Source: Solirubrobacter phytolaccae
Lineage (GTDB): Bacteria; Actinomycetota; Thermoleophilia; Solirubrobacterales; Solirubrobacteraceae
NCBI RefSeq assembly: GCF_027587195.1
Contig: NZ_JAPDDP010000036.1
Span: 1 to 64,000, forward strand
Reading direction: 5' to 3'
Length of the DNA stretch: 64,000 nucleotides
The position numbers and the translations under genes were made by a program. Shown here piece after piece: positions 41,175 to 49,448 of the stretch. The notes below the pieces were generated by a model, which made no database searches, was not told the origin of the DNA, and was given only the letters and a program-made list of their open reading frames with translations. Every line of letters starts with the position of its first letter. Within the stretch, counting starts at the first letter, position 1.

Positions 41175-41276
41175 TTGCTTTCGTGGTTTCGTAGCCATAT
41201 AGTCCGGTCGGGTCCGTCTCAGTGGGGTTGCTGTGCGGACTCGTGCATGTCGTTTCAGTGGAGGAGGTTCCATCCC

Positions 41277-44200
41277 ATGCTTCGAGCTCGCCAGTTGGCT
41301 TGCTTGGCGCCACTTGGTCTCGCGCTTCTGGCGCCGACGGTCGCTGACGCCGCCCCGCGGCTGAAGGTGAAGTCCGTCGCGTCGCCGCCCACGACTGCCG
41401 CTCCCGGCCAGTCGTTCGCGATCAAGACGAGCGTCACGAACAATTCGAAGAAGTCGGCGAAGGTCAGCGTGAAGGTCACGCTGCGCACGTCGAAGAGCGG
41501 CGTGGTGAAGTTCACCGCGAAGGCCGCCAACAAGACCATCAAGGGTCGTAAGTCCGGCAACTACACCGTCCAGGTCAAGCTGCCGTCTTCCCTGAAGGAA
41601 GGCCGCTACTACGTTCGCGCTTGTGCCCAGGTCGGCAAGGGCTCGGCCGCTTGCAAGTTCACCAAGCGCCGCCTGACCGTCAAGAAGGCCGCGCCGCAGC
41701 CCGCGCCGCAGCCCGCGCCCAACCCGGGCACCGGCACGCCGCTCCCGCAGCCTGCTCCAGGCGACGTCGACTTCGACGTCCTCGCGTTCACCAAGGGCGC
41801 CGCCGGTTCGACGACTCCCGCGATCGACGCGCTCAAGGCGCTCGGACGGGAGAACGGCTTCGGCGTCACCGCCACGGAGGACTCCGCTTCCTTCAGCGCC
41901 GCCAACTTGGCCAAGTACAAGGCCGTCGTCTTCGTCAACAACAAGGGCGACGTCCTCACGCTCGAGCAGCAGGGCGCGTTCGAGCAGTACTACAAGGCCG
42001 GCGGTGGCTTCGTCGCGATCGGCGCGGCCATCGAGGCTGAGCCCGACTGGGACTTCTTCGACGAGCTGCTCGGCACGCGCGCCGCGACGACGAACACGAT
42101 CGCTCCGCAGGCGCAGGCCACGATCAAGGTCGCCGACCGCGTCCACGACGCGAGCAAGAACCTTCCGGAGTACTGGAAGCACACCGACACCTACTACAAC
42201 TACGCCCAGAACATTCGTGGCCTCTCGCACGTGCTCGCCACGGTCGACGAGACGACGTACACCGGCGGCACGATGACGACGCTCGCCGACCACCCGATCT
42301 CGTGGTGCAAGGACTACGAGGGTGGCCGCTCGTTCTACACGGGCGCCGGCGCCAACGGCGACTTCTCCGATGCGAACCTCGGCAAGCACCTGACCGGCGC
42401 GATCGATTGGGCCGCCGGCCTGTCGAACCCGGTCTACAGCGACTGCGGCGCGACCGTGCTCGCGAACTTCAAGCAGACGAAGATCTCGGCTCCGCCGAAC
42501 CTGAACGAGCCGATCGGCTTCGACCAGCTTCCGGACGGCCGTGTCATCCAGACCGCCCGCACCGGCGAGGTGCGCCTGCACGAGGCCAACGGCAGCGAGA
42601 TCACGCTCGGCAAGATCCCGGTCTACACGAACTCCGAGGACGGCCTGTACGGCCCGGCGGTCGACCCGAACTTCGCCGAGAACAAGTGGGTGTACCTGTA
42701 CTACGCGCCGCCGGTGGTGGACGTCCGCAAGTGCGACGGCACGACCGTCAAGGTCACGACCCCGACGGGCAGCGCGCCGAACTTCCTGGCCGATGACGCC
42801 GCGGCGTGTGCCTACCAGGAGACCTGGAGCGGCAACTTCCAGCTGTCGCGGTTCAAGTTCATCGACCGCGTCGGCGACCAGCAGCCGAAGATCGACATCA
42901 ACTCCGAAGAGAAGATCATGACCGTCGCGAACAACCGTGGCGCGTGCTGCCACGTTGCTGGCGACATCGACTTCGACGCCCAGGGCAACCTCTGGCTCGT
43001 CACGGGTGACGACACGCCGGCCGGTGCCGGCAACGCCAACGGCTTCTCGCCGCACAACGACTCGGTCACCGACGAGATCCAGACCCTCCGCGTGACGGCG
43101 AGCCCCAACACGTCGGGCGGCACGTTCACGCTGACGTTCAACGGCCGGACGACGGGCGACATCCCGTTCAACGCGAGCCCGGGCGCGGTCGAGAAGGCGC
43201 TGACCGAGCTGCCCGGCATCGGCCGCGGCAACATCACGGTCTGGGGCCAGTACGGCAACACCGTCAACGCCACGAACCACCTGATCGCGTTCGTCGGCAA
43301 GTACAAGGGCCAGGACGTGCCCGCCGTGACGATCAACACGAGCAAGCTCACCGGCACCAACCCCGGTGGCACCGTCACCCAGCCGACGGCGACGTCCGGC
43401 CAGATGCCCGGTCTGCAGAACGCGCCGCACGCCGACGCGCGTCGTGGCGCTCTCAACACCAACGACCTGCGCGGCAAGGTGCTGCGCATCAAGGTCAAGG
43501 CCGGCGAGATCGCCGACAACGAGGAGAACCAGTACGGCGGCGCCTACACGACGCCGGCCGGCAACCTGTTCGCCCCCGGTGACGCGCTCGCGCGTCCCGA
43601 GATCTACGCGATGGGCTTCCGCAACCCGTACCGCATCCAGGTGGACAGCAAGGGCGTCGCCTACGTCACGGACTACTCGCCGGACTCGCAGCTGCCGGAG
43701 GACTTCCGTGGCCCGGCCGGCACCGGCCGTGTCGAGGTCGTGCGTAAGCCGTCGAACTACGGCTGGCCGCTGTGCTACTCGCCGGACCTGCCGTACTACC
43801 AGTGGGACTTCAACGCGTCGCGCCCGCTGGACCAGCTGGACCCCAAGCCGTTCGACTGTGACAACCCGAACCGCGGTCCCGCGAACCTGTCGCGCTGGAA
43901 CACCGGCCGCACCTACTCGCCGCCGATCACCAAGCCCGACATGTGGTACTCGTACCGCGACAACAACGTCGCGCAGGGCGCCATCGGCACGCCGTGCCTG
44001 GCGTACTACGACGGCTCCGGCGGCAAGTGCCCGCAGCTGTTCCCCGACCTGTTCACGGGCGGCGTCGCCCCGCACGGTGCGGCACCGTACGAGTACGACG
44101 CGGACAGCGCCAGCATCACGAAGTTCCCGCCCTACTACGACGGGTCCTTCATCCTCGGTGAGTTCGGCCAGGATCAGCTGCGCGAGGTCCGGATCGACTC

Positions 44201-45434
44201 CAACAACCAGATCCTCAAGAGCAACCAGGCACTCAACTGCGGTCAGGCGCTCGTGCCCACGACGCAGCCGTTCGAGTGCGACAACCCCGAGGACATCCAG
44301 TTCGGGGCCGACGGCAACCTCTACCTGCTGACGTACGGCGACGGCTTCTTCGCCGCCAACGCGGACGCCGGCATGTACAAGTGGGCCTACACCAAGGGCC
44401 CGGAGGCGCCGGCCGCGGTCATCGCCGCGACGCCGACCAGCGGCATCGGGCCGCTCACCGTCCAGTTCTCGAGCGCAGGCTCGAACGACCCGGACGAGGG
44501 CGACTCGATCCGCTACGCGTGGGACTTCGACGGCAACGGCTCGGTCGACTCGATCGACGCCAACCCGTCGCACATCTACACGGCCAACGGCGTCTACCAG
44601 GCGAAGCTGACCGTCACCGACTCGACGGGCCGGACGGACACCAAGAGCCTGCCGATCACGGTGGGCAACACGGCGCCGACCATCACGATCACCACCCCGA
44701 TCGACGGTGACTTCTTCGAGTGGGGCGACAAGATCCCGTACAAGGTCACGGTCACCGACCCGCAGGAGCAGACGATCGACTGCTCGAAGGTCGTCGTCTC
44801 CTTCGTGTTGATCCATGACACGCACGGTCACGGCGAGGACGAGAAGACCGGCTGCGAGGGCACCCTGGACACGCTCGCGGAGGACGCGGGCCACGGCGGC
44901 TACATCGCCGGCGGCATCGTCGCCAACTACACCGACAACGGCGCCAACGGCCAGCCCGCGCTGAGCGGCCGCGCGGAAAGCGTCGTCCAGACCCGTCGTC
45001 AGGACCTGGAGCTCTCGCTCGACGTCTCCGGCACGACCACGGTGGCGACCCCGGCCAACGAGGACAACGGCCAGGGCGCGTCGATCAGCGCCATCGACGC
45101 GGGCGACTGGGTGGCGTTGAACAACCGCTTCAACCTCACCAACATGGACAAGCAGATCACGTTCCGCTACGGAGCGGGCGGCACGGCCGGAAGCCCCCGC
45201 TTCAAGGCCGAGGTCCGCGCGGGCAGCCCGACGGGCACCCTCCTCACAACGGTCTCGTTCAACGCGACGGGCAACAACAACACGTTCAGCAGCCTCACGG
45301 CTCCGCTGAACTTCACCGGCAGCCAGCGGCTGTACCTGGTGTTCCGGGCCGCCGACGGCTCGAACGTGACGTCCGGCTTGGGCGTCATCAACTGGGTCGG
45401 CTTCTCAGGCACCGGCGTGGGCATTCGCCCGTAG
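41277..45434 (+). CDS. Secreted multidomain ThuA-like / glucose-sorbosone dehydrogenase-like / PKD / CBM6 protein
   Basis: 1385 residues, ATG 41277 after GAGGAGG. Signal peptide ends near VADAAP. Residues ~30-145: an Ig/CARDB-like stalk, then a Pro-Ala-Gln linker. ~165-385: ThuA-like domain (FDVLAFTKGAAGSTTPAI). ~396-890: six-bladed sorbosone-dehydrogenase-like propeller (IGFDQLPDGRVIQTARTGEV, MGFRNPYRIQVD, NYGWPLCYSPDLPYYQWDF), of a type whose known members use PQQ to oxidise sugars. The propeller is interrupted at ~600-705 by an inserted beta domain (TFTLTFNGRTTGDIPFNASP). ~1044-1130: PKD domain. ~1235-1385: CBM6-like sugar-binding module. Together this suggests a carbohydrate-bound extracellular oxidoreductase. 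Confidence 0.85.
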   Translation: MLRARQLACLAPLGLALLAPTVADAAPRLKVKSVASPPTTAAPGQSFAIKTSVTNNSKKSAKVSVKVTLRTSKSGVVKFTAKAANKTIKGRKSGNYTVQVKLPSSLKEGRYYVRACAQVGKGSAACKFTKRRLTVKKAAPQPAPQPAPNPGTGTPLPQPAPGDVDFDVLAFTKGAAGSTTPAIDALKALGRENGFGVTATEDSASFSAANLAKYKAVVFVNNKGDVLTLEQQGAFEQYYKAGGGFVAIGAAIEAEPDWDFFDELLGTRAATTNTIAPQAQATIKVADRVHDASKNLPEYWKHTDTYYNYAQNIRGLSHVLATVDETTYTGGTMTTLADHPISWCKDYEGGRSFYTGAGANGDFSDANLGKHLTGAIDWAAGLSNPVYSDCGATVLANFKQTKISAPPNLNEPIGFDQLPDGRVIQTARTGEVRLHEANGSEITLGKIPVYTNSEDGLYGPAVDPNFAENKWVYLYYAPPVVDVRKCDGTTVKVTTPTGSAPNFLADDAAACAYQETWSGNFQLSRFKFIDRVGDQQPKIDINSEEKIMTVANNRGACCHVAGDIDFDAQGNLWLVTGDDTPAGAGNANGFSPHNDSVTDEIQTLRVTASPNTSGGTFTLTFNGRTTGDIPFNASPGAVEKALTELPGIGRGNITVWGQYGNTVNATNHLIAFVGKYKGQDVPAVTINTSKLTGTNPGGTVTQPTATSGQMPGLQNAPHADARRGALNTNDLRGKVLRIKVKAGEIADNEENQYGGAYTTPAGNLFAPGDALARPEIYAMGFRNPYRIQVDSKGVAYVTDYSPDSQLPEDFRGPAGTGRVEVVRKPSNYGWPLCYSPDLPYYQWDFNASRPLDQLDPKPFDCDNPNRGPANLSRWNTGRTYSPPITKPDMWYSYRDNNVAQGAIGTPCLAYYDGSGGKCPQLFPDLFTGGVAPHGAAPYEYDADSASITKFPPYYDGSFILGEFGQDQLREVRIDSNNQILKSNQALNCGQALVPTTQPFECDNPEDIQFGADGNLYLLTYGDGFFAANADAGMYKWAYTKGPEAPAAVIAATPTSGIGPLTVQFSSAGSNDPDEGDSIRYAWDFDGNGSVDSIDANPSHIYTANGVYQAKLTVTDSTGRTDTKSLPITVGNTAPTITITTPIDGDFFEWGDKIPYKVTVTDPQEQTIDCSKVVVSFVLIHDTHGHGEDEKTGCEGTLDTLAEDAGHGGYIAGGIVANYTDNGANGQPALSGRAESVVQTRRQDLELSLDVSGTTTVATPANEDNGQGASISAIDAGDWVALNNRFNLTNMDKQITFRYGAGGTAGSPRFKAEVRAGSPTGTLLTTVSFNATGNNNTFSSLTAPLNFTGSQRLYLVFRAADGSNVTSGLGVINWVGFSGTGVGIRP

Positions 45435-45464: not shown

Positions 45465-45500
45465 AAAGGGCGCCGCGCGAGGTTCGCGCGGCGCCCTTTT
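45465..45500 (+). terminator. Strong Rho-independent terminator
   Basis: AAAGGGCGCCGCGCG (45465-45479) pairs perfectly with CGCGCGGCGCCCTTT (45485-45499), followed by TTTTGCGTTTTC. It is the best intrinsic terminator in the window and ends the ThuA/dehydrogenase gene. Confidence 0.92.
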
Positions 45501-45555
45501 GCGTTTTCACGGCGCGTTGACTTGCTCGCCCTCGCGGCGTGATCGGGTGCCGGGC

Positions 45556-46758
45556 ATGAAGCGACTCATCACCGCCACGGCGGCTTTGACGTTCCTGCTC
45601 GCGCCCGCGGCGCACGCCACGGGCCACAAGGGAGGCGAGCCCGCGCTGGAGGCGCGCGCGATCCTGCCCGCTGACGCTTCCTTCCCGGCGCCGTTCGCGG
45701 GGGTCATCAACACCGACCCGGCCCCCGCGCCGGGCGCCACGCAGCCGGTCGGCGGGTTCTCCGCGCTGCTGGACGCCGGCAACGGCGAGTTCTGGGCGAT
45801 GCCGGACAACGGCTTCGGCAACAAGGCCAACTCGCGCTCGTTCATCCTGCGCCTGTACCGCGTGAAGCCGAACTGGCGCACGGAGTGGGGCGGCAAGGGC
45901 ACCGTGCAGATCCGCGAGGCGATCACGCTCAGCGACCCGGACGAGAAGATCCCGTTCCGGATCGTCAACGAGACGACGCCGGACCGCATCCTCACCGGCG
46001 GCGACCTCGACATCGAGTCGGTGCGCCAGGCGCCGGACGGCACGTTCTGGTTCGGCGAGGAGTTCGGCCCGTTCATCGTCCACACCGACAGCAAGGGCCG
46101 CGTGCTCGACGCGCCGGTCTCGATCCCGCGCATCGCCGGCCAGCCGCGCGTGCAGTCGCCGGACAACCCGTACCTGTTCGGGCGCACGAACAACCTCGGC
46201 GGCTCCAGCGGGTTCGAGGCCATGGCGCTGTCGGCCGACGGTCGCACGCTCTACCCGTTCCTCGAGGGCGCCGTCATCGGTGACGATCCGCTCGTCCGCC
46301 GCGTCTACGAGTTCGACATCAAGGAGCGTCGCTACACCGGGCGCACCTGGACCTACCGCATGACCCAGCCGACCACGTTCGTGTCCGACGCCGTCGCCTA
46401 TGGCCGCGACCAGCTGATCGTCACCGAGCGCGACAACGGCCAGGGCGCCACCGCGCTGTGGAAGAAGGCGTTCGTGATCGACGTGCCGGATCGCCGCTCG
46501 GTGCTTGCCAAGCGCGAGATCGTCGACCTGATCGACATCAAGGACCGTGACGGCATCTCGCTGTTCGGCGCCCGCCCCGGCGACTTCGGCCTCGGCGACC
46601 CGTTCAAGTTCCCGTACTCGACCGTCGAGGCGGTCCTTCCGCTCTCGGGCAACGAGCTCGCGTTCGTCAATGACACGAACTTCGGCTCGACCGGTCGGAA
46701 CGCGAACCTTCCGGACTACTCGGACTTCATCATCGTGAAGGTCCCCGGGATCAAGTAG
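45556..46758 (+). CDS. Secreted phytase-like (esterase-like) protein
   Basis: 400 residues from ATG 45556. Signal peptide MKRLITATAALTFLLAPAAHA. The mature protein matches the phytase-like beta-propeller family, also called esterase-like activity of phytase. Characteristic blocks are VGGFSALLDAGNGEFWAMPDNGFG, GGDLDIESVRQAPDGTFWFGEEFGPF, FEAMALSADGRTLYPFLEGAV and a closing FVNDTNFG. Characterised relatives act on phosphate esters, but the substrate here is unknown. It may help in phosphate scavenging. It is flanked by two terminators, so it is monocistronic. Confidence 0.82.
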   Translation: MKRLITATAALTFLLAPAAHATGHKGGEPALEARAILPADASFPAPFAGVINTDPAPAPGATQPVGGFSALLDAGNGEFWAMPDNGFGNKANSRSFILRLYRVKPNWRTEWGGKGTVQIREAITLSDPDEKIPFRIVNETTPDRILTGGDLDIESVRQAPDGTFWFGEEFGPFIVHTDSKGRVLDAPVSIPRIAGQPRVQSPDNPYLFGRTNNLGGSSGFEAMALSADGRTLYPFLEGAVIGDDPLVRRVYEFDIKERRYTGRTWTYRMTQPTTFVSDAVAYGRDQLIVTERDNGQGATALWKKAFVIDVPDRRSVLAKREIVDLIDIKDRDGISLFGARPGDFGLGDPFKFPYSTVEAVLPLSGNELAFVNDTNFGSTGRNANLPDYSDFIIVKVPGIK

Positions 46759-46766
46759 TACCTTCC

Positions 46767-46797
46767 GTCCCGGGAGGCTCGGGAGGCCTCCCGGGAC
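46767..46797 (+). terminator. Hairpin after the phytase-like gene
   Basis: GTCCCGGGAGGC (46767-46778) pairs perfectly with GCCTCCCGGGAC (46786-46797) across a 7-nt loop. It is followed by AAAGGGG, the ribosome-binding site of the next gene, rather than a T-tract. Confidence 0.65.
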
Positions 46798-46811
46798 AAA
46801 GGGGTACAGCT

Positions 46812-49448
46812 GTGCGCGTACGTATGGCGGGGGTCGCCGCTGCGGCGATCACGATGGTCTGCGCGCTGCCGTCGGGAGCGGTGGCCGCGGGAGATCCGGC
46901 GAAGCAGATCGAGGCGCTGCAGAAGATCAAGCGCTCACTGTCGCCGGGCGAGCGCAAGCTCGACGGCCGATTGGCGGTCGAGCTGCGGCAGGGCAAGGCC
47001 GGGACGACGGAGGTCGACATCACGGTCTCCAAGCCCGACGAGGCGTTGGTCGCGCGGCTGCAGCAGGCCGGCGCGACCGTGCGGCACGTGGCGAGCACGG
47101 GGGAGATCCGGGCCGCGGTACCGGCGTCCGCGCTGCGGACGGTGGCGACGTGGGGCGCGGTCGAGCGGATCGAGCCGGCGGCGCAGGCGATGACCGCCCG
47201 GATCGGCGGGCGGACGCTCTCGAAGGAGGAGCGGGCGGAGATCACGGCGGCTGCGCGGGCGGCGGTCGTGACGTCGGAGGGCGTGCGCGCCCACGCGGCG
47301 GACACGGCGCGCGAGACCACGAAGGTCACCGGGATCGGGACGAAGCTGTGCGCGCTGTCGGACGGCGTCGACTCGCTGGCGGCCTCGCAGGCCGCGGGTG
47401 AGCTGCCGGCGGTCGACGTGCTGCCCGATCAGGCGGGCTCCGGGGACGAGGGCACGGCGATGCTCGAGATCCTGCACGACATGGCCCCGGGCGCCGAGCT
47501 CGGATTCGCGTCGGCGTTCATCAGCGACGCCTCGTTCGCGGACAACATCCGCGCGCTGCGATCCGAGGCCGGCTGTGACGTGATCGTCGACGACGTCCTG
47601 TACTTCAACGAGTCGCCGTTCGAGGACGGGCCGATCGCCCAGGCGGTCAACGACGTCACGGCCGACGGCGCGTTGTACTTCTCCTCGGCCGGCAACGAGG
47701 GCAACGTGCTCGACGGCACGTCCGGCAACTACGAGGGTGACTTCCGTGGTTCGGGCCAGACGGTCGGCAAGTTCGCGGGGGAGGCGCACGACTTCGACCC
47801 GGGCGAGCCGGTGCAGGTGTTCGAGCCGATCTCGCCCGACTCGGACGACGGGGTGCCGGTCACGCTGTGGTGGGCGAACCAGCTCGGCGCGGCCGCCGAC
47901 GACTATGACCTGTACCTGTTCGACGGGACCGGCACCGTGGTTAACTTCGCGCAGGACGTCCAGGACGGTGACGACGACCCGTACGAGCTGCTGTTCACCC
48001 CGGACTTCGGCGGGAGTGGGCTCCGGCTGGCGGTGGTGCGGTTCGCCGGCGCGCCGAAGTACCTCCAGCTCAGCGCGTTGCGCGGGCGCTTCGAGGCGGC
48101 GGGCGCACTGCCGGCGTGGGTGTCACCGGGTGTGACCCGTGGTCACTCCGCCGCTGCCGATGCGTTCAGCATCGCGGCGGCGCCGGCGGCGACCGCACTG
48201 CCGTACGCCCTCGAGCCGGGCGATCCGCCGAACCCGACGGGGCCGTTCCCGGGATCGTTCACCTCGGCGCAGCTGCCAGAGCGCTTCACCTCAGACGGAC
48301 CGCGCCGGGTGTTCTTCCCGACTGAGCAGGTGAGGGCGAAGCCGGACTTCACCGCCGCCGACGGTGTGAGCACGTCGGTAGAAGGGTTCCAACCGTTCTT
48401 CGGCACTTCGGCGGCCGCGCCGTCCGCGGCGGGGATCGCGGCGCTGGTGCTGTCAGGAAATCCGAGCGCGTCGATCGCTGACGTGCGTGAGGCGTTCGGG
48501 GCGACGGCGCTCGACCTCGCCCCGGCGGGTGTCGACGGGCGGACCGGCGCGGGCGTGCTGCGGGCGGACAGCGTGCTGAGTTACACCGGCGCGACGCCGC
48601 AGCCGTTGGTGCGTGCTTCGGCGCCGGATGTGACGGTGACCACCGGCGACGGGGATGCGTTCCTGGAGCCGGGGGAGACCGCGCGTCTGCGGTTGCCGGT
48701 GACGAACGTCGGCGACGGCACGGCGACGGGCGTGAGCGTGACGGTCTCAACCGGCGACGCCAAGGCGGTGGTGACGCCGCGGTCGCAGTCCTACGGCGAG
48801 ATCGCGCCGGGCATCACGCGCTCCCAGGACTACACGCTGCGGCTCGCGGCCGACTATCCGCTCGGTAAACGCGTGCCTTTGAACGTACGGGTAACGTTTG
48901 CCGGTGTGCTGTCGCCGACGTCCGATGCGTTCTCGCTCCCCACCGGCCAGCCCGGAACGGCGGCGACGAAGTTCAGCTACACCGGGCCGGTCGTCCCGAT
49001 CCCGGACGTGAGCACGCTGGGCGTGACGGTGACGATTCCGGTGGCCGGGTTCGGCTACGCGTCGAAGCTGCGCTTCTCGATCGACGGGGCCACGTGCAAC
49101 ACGACGGTGGGGTCCACCACGGTCGGCATCGACCATTCCTTCACCGGCGACTTGACCGGGACGCTGATCGCACCTTCGGGTGCGGAGGCCCGGCTGTTCC
49201 AGCGTGTGGGTGGCACGGGCAACAACCTGTGTCAGGTGGTGTTCGACGACACGTCGACGCGCCCGTTCCAGAGTGTGACCGCGTCGCTGGCGCCGTTCAC
49301 CGGGACGTGGAAGCCGTTCGAGCCGCTCGGCGGGTTGCTCGACGCGGCGGCTGACGGTGACTGGAAGTTCAAGGTCACCGACGGAGCACGGCTGGACACC
49401 GGATCGGTCCGGGCCGTGTCGCTCGAGTTGACGGGGTTCGTCAGGTGA
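46812..49448 (+). CDS. Secreted S8-like peptidase with P-domain and Glu in place of the catalytic His
   Basis: 878 residues from GTG 46812 with a signal peptide (ends near AVAAG). Residues ~30-150 are an inhibitor-like propeptide region. The subtilase-like domain (~170-590) has Asp184 (LCALSDGVDSL), the oxyanion Asn295 (FSSAGNEGN) and Ser533 (FGTSAAAPSAAG). At the position of the catalytic His the motif is GSGDEGTAMLEILHD, giving Glu213 instead, 29 residues after Asp184. A Ser-Glu-Asp arrangement is known in sedolisins (S53), so activity is possible but not assured. ~600-720 is a CARDB-like beta domain. The last ~130 residues resemble the proprotein-convertase P-domain (FTGDLTGTLIAPSGAEARLF). 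The end overlaps the convergent aminotransferase gene by 8 bp. Confidence 0.82.
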   Translation: MRVRMAGVAAAAITMVCALPSGAVAAGDPAKQIEALQKIKRSLSPGERKLDGRLAVELRQGKAGTTEVDITVSKPDEALVARLQQAGATVRHVASTGEIRAAVPASALRTVATWGAVERIEPAAQAMTARIGGRTLSKEERAEITAAARAAVVTSEGVRAHAADTARETTKVTGIGTKLCALSDGVDSLAASQAAGELPAVDVLPDQAGSGDEGTAMLEILHDMAPGAELGFASAFISDASFADNIRALRSEAGCDVIVDDVLYFNESPFEDGPIAQAVNDVTADGALYFSSAGNEGNVLDGTSGNYEGDFRGSGQTVGKFAGEAHDFDPGEPVQVFEPISPDSDDGVPVTLWWANQLGAAADDYDLYLFDGTGTVVNFAQDVQDGDDDPYELLFTPDFGGSGLRLAVVRFAGAPKYLQLSALRGRFEAAGALPAWVSPGVTRGHSAAADAFSIAAAPAATALPYALEPGDPPNPTGPFPGSFTSAQLPERFTSDGPRRVFFPTEQVRAKPDFTAADGVSTSVEGFQPFFGTSAAAPSAAGIAALVLSGNPSASIADVREAFGATALDLAPAGVDGRTGAGVLRADSVLSYTGATPQPLVRASAPDVTVTTGDGDAFLEPGETARLRLPVTNVGDGTATGVSVTVSTGDAKAVVTPRSQSYGEIAPGITRSQDYTLRLAADYPLGKRVPLNVRVTFAGVLSPTSDAFSLPTGQPGTAATKFSYTGPVVPIPDVSTLGVTVTIPVAGFGYASKLRFSIDGATCNTTVGSTTVGIDHSFTGDLTGTLIAPSGAEARLFQRVGGTGNNLCQVVFDDTSTRPFQSVTASLAPFTGTWKPFEPLGGLLDAAADGDWKFKVTDGARLDTGSVRAVSLELTGFVR

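What the first reader, a model, noticed from the sequence alone, without database searches (positions are those of the whole stretch)
46812..49448. S8-like secreted peptidase with Glu replacing the catalytic His
Seen: Asp184, Asn295 and Ser533 are in standard subtilase contexts. The residue at the His position, 29 after the Asp, is Glu213 in GSGDEGTAM. Known: subtilisins need His; sedolisins use a Ser-Glu-Asp triad and work at acid pH. Inference: this is either an intermediate active-site type, an acid-active enzyme, or an inactive scaffold. The C-terminal P-domain implies a folded, processed product.
Basis: partly seen in the sequence, partly recalled or inferred. Interest (0 to 1): 0.52.

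Follow-up and report, generated by a model that had tools for sequence, protein, structure and literature searches.

The report
Subtilisin-like protease with glutamate-rewired active site
This soil-bacterium gene belongs to a widespread group of secreted subtilisin-like proteins in which the usual catalytic histidine has become a glutamate and nearby active-site residues changed with it, so it is probably a protease that works by a different acid-based chemistry that nobody appears to have measured.

Summary
Window 46812-49448 encodes an 878-aa secreted subtilase, and Glu213 sits exactly at the His64 position of subtilisin. But Asp184 is not at the Asp32 position: the residue there is Ser183, and Asp184 is one place later. 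In 60 distinct homologues from Actinomycetota, Pseudomonadota and Bacteroidota, Glu213, Asp261 and Asn295 are invariant (60 of 60), as are Ser183 and Ser533 (59 of 59). Asp261 replaces Ser125 of subtilisin. The nearest relatives, 23 His-type S8 proteins, have Asp/His/Ser at those places; no mixed forms among the 83. So this is a coordinated rewiring (D32S, H64E, S125D) in one clade, closest to S8 and independent of the sedolisins (S53). I read it as an active Ser-Glu-Asp peptidase with Asp261 (or Asp184) as Glu213's partner. An inactive scaffold is less likely, but activity, pH optimum and geometry are untested: both structure predictions failed. No other histidine is invariant. A 2007 survey (Siezen et al.; abstract recalled, paper not held) seems to have predicted such a class, so I call it a new member of a known but apparently uncharacterised kind.

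The parts
46812..49448 (+). Glu-type (DEG) subtilase gene, 878 aa, secreted
   Evidence: RBS-like AAAGGGG at 46798-46804
46812..46889 (+). probable signal peptide (residues 1-26)
   Evidence: read from the sequence; no signal-peptide program was run
47004..47177 (+). prodomain core (residues 65-122), predicted order beta-alpha-beta-beta-alpha-beta as in S8 propeptides (resemblance recalled)
   Evidence: local pLDDT about 70-86 in this part of an otherwise poor model; no Pfam I9 match
47358..47363 (+). Ser183-Asp184: Ser at the Asp32 position, Asp at position 33
47445..47450 (+). Asp212-Glu213: Glu at the His64 position (DEG motif)
   Evidence: E213 in 60 of 60
47589..47594 (+). Asp260-Asp261: Asp261 at the Ser125 position
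   Evidence: D261 in 60 of 60
47694..47696 (+). Asn295, oxyanion-hole Asn (Asn155 position)
   Evidence: 60 of 60
47709..48131 (+). insertion (about residues 300-440) with a DYDLYL motif, shared with the His-type relatives
   Evidence: no Pfam match for this stretch alone
48144..48146 (+). His445, common in Glu-type members, missing in four full-length ones
48408..48410 (+). Ser533, nucleophile (Ser221 position)
   Evidence: 59 of 59 with a residue there
48624..48839 (+). CARDB/NEW3-like domain, below Pfam cut-off (residues 605-676)
49119..49427 (+). P-domain (residues 770-872)
   Evidence: PF01483, 28.6 bits, cut-off 21, 36.1 bits

Best explanation
The gene encodes a secreted, prodomain-bearing serine peptidase of the subtilisin fold, belonging to one distinct lineage of S8-type proteins whose active site was rewired as a unit. 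Ser533 is the nucleophile, with Asn295 and the Ser533 amide forming the oxyanion hole (shown: invariant, as in S8). Glu213 replaces His64 as general base (shown: position and invariance; inferred: role). The partner that shares a proton with Glu213 is a strand-borne aspartate, most likely Asp261 at the Ser125 position, with Asp184 (residue 33) as the alternative; Ser183 stands where Asp32 was. This is the Ser-Glu-Asp chemistry of sedolisins reached independently and with the acid in a different place. A pH optimum below that of subtilisins is expected but not shown. The P-domain and the CARDB-like domain are accessories.
For: Invariance in 60 distinct Glu-type homologues: E213, D261, N295 60/60; S183 and S533 59/59; D260 59/60 (one E); D212 58/60; D184 55/59. 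The same holds in 26 clusters at 60% identity, where only 32 of 406 columns are at least 95% conserved. The 23 nearest His-type S8 proteins have D32 23/23, H64 23/23, S125 21/23, N155 and S221 23/23; no mixed types among the 83. Three alignment routes give the same equivalences. Glu-type and His-type are split by one branch (SH-aLRT 99.8) with active-site columns removed; together they separate from canonical S8 (100) and, with S53 added, still group (95). hhalign: Glu-type to His-type S8 4e-58, to canonical S8 2e-17, to S53 7e-8. Purifying selection in the catalytic domain. In savinase, residues 32, 64, 125, 155 and 221 are the five key active-site residues (PMC11593635, passages): exactly 32, 64 and 125 changed here.
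Against: No structure: both AlphaFold2 jobs failed (mean pLDDT 52.5 and 32.8), so no distance between Glu213, Asp184, Asp261 and Ser533 is known. No assay exists in anything I found. The choice of Asp261 over Asp184 rests on four exceptions (N in L037, L115, L134; T in L160), three of which are the longest branches of the clade and may be functionally divergent. Five conserved carboxylates at or beside active-site positions could also bind a cation. Calculated pI gives no sign of acid adaptation.
Confidence: 0.62

Rival explanations
1. Same active enzyme, but the acid partner is Asp184: the catalytic Asp moved one residue along the first strand (residue 33) and still reaches Glu213, while Asp261 has another role.
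For: Asp184 is next to the Asp32 position and is Asp in 55 of 59. The 2007 survey, as I recall it, modelled the Asp on a beta strand in a topologically similar position.
Against: Asn in three sequences and Thr in one, all keeping E213, D261, N295 and S533; D261 has no exception in 60.
Confidence: 0.3
2. A His from elsewhere, best candidate His445 in the GH(S/N/A) segment after the insertion, replaces the lost base; Glu213 and the aspartates have another role.
For: His445 is present in 55 of the 55 Glu-type sequences with a residue in that column and in none of the 23 His-type ones.
Against: Four full-length Glu-type members (L013, L014, L133, L134; two separate places in the tree) have no residue in that column yet keep E213, D261, N295 and S533. 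Other His columns are less conserved: H222 56/60, H538 43/59, H326 41/60.
Confidence: 0.08
3. Inactive subtilase scaffold (pseudoprotease), or a site turned into a Ca2+/cation site by the five carboxylates, with a binding or structural function.
For: Loss of both His64 and Asp32; five acidic residues (184, 212, 213, 260, 261) conserved together.
Against: Ser533, Thr532 and Asn295 without exception over 26 clusters at 60% identity; a prodomain-like region retained; a decaying site would not fix Glu and Asp in 60 of 60.
Confidence: 0.2
4. A sedolisin (S53) or a step on the way from S8 to S53.
For: Glu at the same position as the S53 base (E in 6 of 6 S53 rows).
Against: Met217, not Asp, at Glu+4; Asn not Asp in the oxyanion hole; nearest relatives are His-type S8; no Pro-kuma_activ match at E<=1. 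The same genome has a separate S53-type gene (L175).
Confidence: 0.02

Closest known systems
MEROPS S8A subtilisins
   Same: Fold family (PF00082), Asn155 and Ser221 equivalents, GTSAAAP nucleophile motif, secretion, prodomain-like region
   Different: Asp32 to Ser, His64 to Glu, Ser125 to Asp, extra Asp at 33, 63 and 124; long insertion (shared with the His-type relatives)
His-type S8 sister group (L090-L096, L108, L135-L143 and others)
   Same: Same insertion, same block around the base (HGTACAEIVHDVAPG against DEGTAMLEILHDMAPG), aligned over 393 columns, hhalign E 4e-58
   Different: Keeps Asp32, His64, Ser125
S53 sedolisins / kumamolisin
   Same: Glu as base, Ser nucleophile, Ser-Glu-Asp type chemistry (inferred here)
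   Different: S53 has Asp at Glu+4 on one helix, Asp in the oxyanion hole and Ser at position 125 (PMC11593635 passages); here none of these. Separate origin
Subset of prokaryotic subtilases in Siezen, Renckens and Boekhorst 2007 (Proteins 67:681; title seen in reference lists; abstract recalled, paper not held)
   Same: As recalled: resembles sedolisins, but the catalytic Asp is on a beta strand, not on the helix of the Glu. That fits this family
   Different: Cannot check their motifs or members; the Asp32-to-Ser shift and the invariant Asp261 are from my own alignments
E-H-S subtilases such as SprP of Pseudomonas aeruginosa (PMC3937732 passages)
   Same: A catalytic-residue variant of S8 that is proteolytically active, Ser-dependent
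   Different: There the Asp is replaced by Glu and His is kept
CDD cd05562 Peptidases_S53_like (recalled, no call; the search found nothing)
   Same: Possibly the database name under which such sequences are filed
   Different: Not tested

Membership tests
S8 subtilase (family/fold level) | Peptidase_S8 profile match over the curated cut-off | tested here: met
   43.9 bits against 21.8; all 14 members of A2 match at E<=1
S8 subtilase (classical D-H-S) | Asp32-His64-Ser221 triad | tested here: not met
   Ser, Glu, Ser at these places in all Glu-type rows that have a residue there
S8 subtilase (family/fold level) | Asn155 oxyanion residue | tested here: met
   Asn in 60 of 60
S8 subtilase (family/fold level) | closer to S8 than to S53 in sequence | tested here: met
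S53 sedolisin | Glu-x-x-x-Asp on one helix | tested here: not met
   E213 followed by Met217; Met in all 26 cluster representatives
S53 sedolisin | Asp in the oxyanion hole | tested here: not met
   Asn 22 of 22 here, Asp 6 of 6 in S53 rows
S53 sedolisin | Pro-kuma_activ propeptide | tested here: not met
   no PF09286 match at E<=1
S53 sedolisin | acid pH optimum | not testable with these tools
   needs an assay
Siezen 2007 strand-Asp subset | Glu base with conserved Asp on a strand | tested here: inconclusive
   Glu and strand-region aspartates conserved, but no usable structure and the paper is not held
Pseudoprotease | loss of the nucleophile or oxyanion residue | tested here: not met
   Ser533 and Asn295 invariant
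P-domain subtilases (proprotein convertase, kexin-like) | P-domain after the catalytic domain together with a D-H-S triad | tested here: not met
   P-domain present, but no D-H-S triad; other Glu-type members have other C-terminal domains

The most novel reading that the evidence does not exclude
A third working catalytic layout of the subtilisin fold: Ser221 + Glu64 + Asp125 (here Ser533-Glu213-Asp261) with the S8 oxyanion Asn kept, evolved from the His type in one coordinated step and independently of the sedolisins, with His-type sisters still available to retrace the switch.
Probability: 0.45. Interest if true: 0.68.

Novelty: new member of a known kind. Interest (0 to 1): 0.5.

Why it matters
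The catalytic His of subtilisin is a textbook fixed point. A single clade, present in at least three phyla, in which three of the five key active-site residues changed together while the nucleophile and oxyanion Asn stayed, is a natural experiment on how a serine protease can switch its base. Because the nearest relatives keep the ordinary triad and align over nearly the whole domain, the switch can be studied residue by residue. It is also a practical annotation point: the profile libraries searched here file these proteins as ordinary S8 peptidases, and they may be acid-active enzymes.

Tried and rejected
Structure prediction: full length with 8 sequences (mean pLDDT 52.5) and residues 154-593 with 9 sequences (32.8). 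Only the window and loci of the search for related loci or the DNA search were admissible, so the alignments were shallow; neither model is usable for the active site, and no fold search was run.

His rescue: His222, His326, His445 and His538 examined; none is without exception.

Acid adaptation by pI: Glu-type median 4.37, His-type 4.31, no difference.

Phage or mobile origin: no match in 50,697 phage records; one Glu-type relative in the viral contigs (L037); no PADLOC match. A chromosomal-type gene with conserved neighbours inside the genus only.

Operon or partner: neighbours are a ThuA/GSDH/PKD protein, a phytase-like esterase and PLP enzymes; no conserved partner outside the genus among the loci compared.

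Literature: ten searches listed no paper that I recognised as an experimental study of a Glu-for-His S8 protease; the library lacks most subscription papers, and I read only passages of five papers (PMC11593635, PMC9549277, PMC3937732, PMC2605481, PMC3339403).

Full report
What is there. Window 46812-49448 (+) is one 878-aa ORF with a GTG start, a ribosome-binding-like AAAGGGG seven bases upstream and an N terminus that reads as a signal peptide (no program was run). Pfam finds Peptidase_S8 (residues 272-581) and a P-domain (770-872), both above cut-off; a CARDB-like match at 605-676 is below cut-off. The window lies in a Solirubrobacter-like genome; the closest named homologue is S. taibaiensis, 83% identical. 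The catalytic domain is under purifying selection (dN/dS 0.13, 0.17 and 0.28 against three congeners).

The correction. Profile alignment, profile-profile alignment against His-type and canonical S8 sets and a joint alignment of 61 sequences (22 Glu-type, 23 His-type, 10 canonical S8 of the same genome, 6 S53) agree that Ser183 is at Asp32 and Asp184 at residue 33. They also agree that Glu213 is at His64, Asp261 at Ser125, Asn295 at Asn155 and Ser533 at Ser221. In one search the columns read, for Glu-type / His-type / canonical S8 / S53: position 183 S 22 / D 23 / D 10 / mixed; 213 E 22 / H 23 / H 10 / E 6; 261 D 22 / S 23 / S 10 / S 6; 295 N 22 / N 23 / N 10 / D 6; 533 S in all.

How general it is. 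From 123 matched rows I dropped 20 duplicates and 20 rows under 300 aa, leaving 83: 60 Glu-type and 23 His-type, none mixed. Glu-type: E213, G214, D261, N295 60/60; S183 and S533 59/59 (one gap each); D260 59/60; D212 58/60; D184 55/59, with Asn in L037, L115 and L134 and Thr in L160. Clustering at 60% identity (26 clusters) gives the same picture. The sample was chosen by similarity to the Glu-type profile, so mixed forms among more distant S8 proteins are not excluded. Glu-type members occur in Actinomycetota, Pseudomonadota (L007; Mitsuaria plasmid) and Bacteroidota (Persicobacter plasmid), and a truncated ORF with TDEGRAM lies on a cyanobacterial plasmid (not among the 60). Frequencies read off the match tables together: 4 of 7 genomes of the genus (G000-G006), 19 of 299 of the class (E<=1e-40), 17 of 150 of the order of Actinoplanes, 3 of 66 of the class of G218, 3 of 398 sampled in the Hydrocarboniphaga phylum (E<=1e-25). 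Within the window's own genome, 30 places match PF00082; in a motif scan (rough: it missed some frames) only this one had the (D/S)EG(T/R)(A/G)M form.

Origin. With the active-site columns removed, Glu-type and His-type are two sides of one branch (SH-aLRT 99.8). With canonical S8 and S53 added, the four groups stay apart and Glu-type groups with His-type (100 without S53, 95 with S53; short searches, no bootstrap). hhalign E-values are 4e-58 to His-type, 2e-17 to canonical S8 and 7e-8 to S53. So the Glu was most likely acquired within S8-like proteins, independently of the sedolisins. The S53 group here holds 6 of the 7 loci (one gave no ORF by my motif filter).

Mechanism. PMC11593635 (passages only) lists five key residues of savinase: Asp32, His64, Ser125 (whose carbonyl touches the His), Asn155, Ser221; sedolisins keep the Ser125 equivalent, move the acid to Glu+4 and use Asp in the oxyanion hole. 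Here three of the five changed together, and the carboxylate that never varies besides Glu213 is Asp261. I therefore propose Ser533-Glu213-Asp261, with Asp184 as the alternative acid. Shown: positions, invariance, co-occurrence. Inferred: roles, geometry, activity, pH. Against: no structure; the Asp184 exceptions are few and three are long branches; a cation site is possible; pI shows no acid adaptation. No His is without exception: His445 is present in 55 sequences, but four full-length members have no residue in that column.

Novelty. None of the PDB sequences listed by the family-profile search (best 60 of 176) is named as a Glu-type enzyme; the matches are to ordinary S8 proteases and cover mainly the part around the nucleophile. 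Pfam and NCBIfam offered no separate family. However, Siezen, Renckens and Boekhorst 2007 (title seen in reference lists; abstract recalled; paper not held) reported, as I remember, a sedolisin-like subset with the catalytic Asp on a strand. That very probably is this class, so I file the window gene as a new member of it. What my evidence adds is the Asp32-to-Ser shift, the exceptionless Asp261, the His-type sister group and the independence from S53; whether that paper already had any of these I could not check.

Noticed in passing
window 46767-46797: A GC-rich hairpin (13 pairs, 5-base loop) lies between the phytase-like gene and the start of the protease gene, just upstream of the RBS-like AAAGGGG; folding energy z-score -4.2. 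Could be a terminator, attenuator or translation control.
   Followed up: partly
L175 (G000 contig 81, 176980-177348, -): The same genome encodes an S53-type gene (Pro-kuma_activ, 54 bits), so both Glu-based types coexist.
   Followed up: partly
L097, L098, L101, L102: In one family of the class, two His-type subtilase ORFs lie together in one locus, one with NHGELVAQ and one with HGTRMAE motifs, possibly a paired system.
   Followed up: no
L116 5578-6312: A Glu-type ORF on a Chroococcidiopsis plasmid stops shortly after the DEG motif: a truncated copy or a frameshift.
   Followed up: no
L037 3572-8206: Most divergent Glu-type member by motif, on an IMG/VR contig, 1544 aa with a Por secretion tail; has SN and SEG but keeps the E213, D260 and D261 equivalents. 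The contig may be a misassigned Bacteroidota fragment.
   Followed up: partly
window 41175-45434 and 45499-46758: Upstream neighbours are a secreted ThuA/GSDH/PKD/CBM6 protein and a phytase-like esterase; the esterase gene lies next to the protease in all three congener loci compared, the ThuA protein in one.
   Followed up: partly
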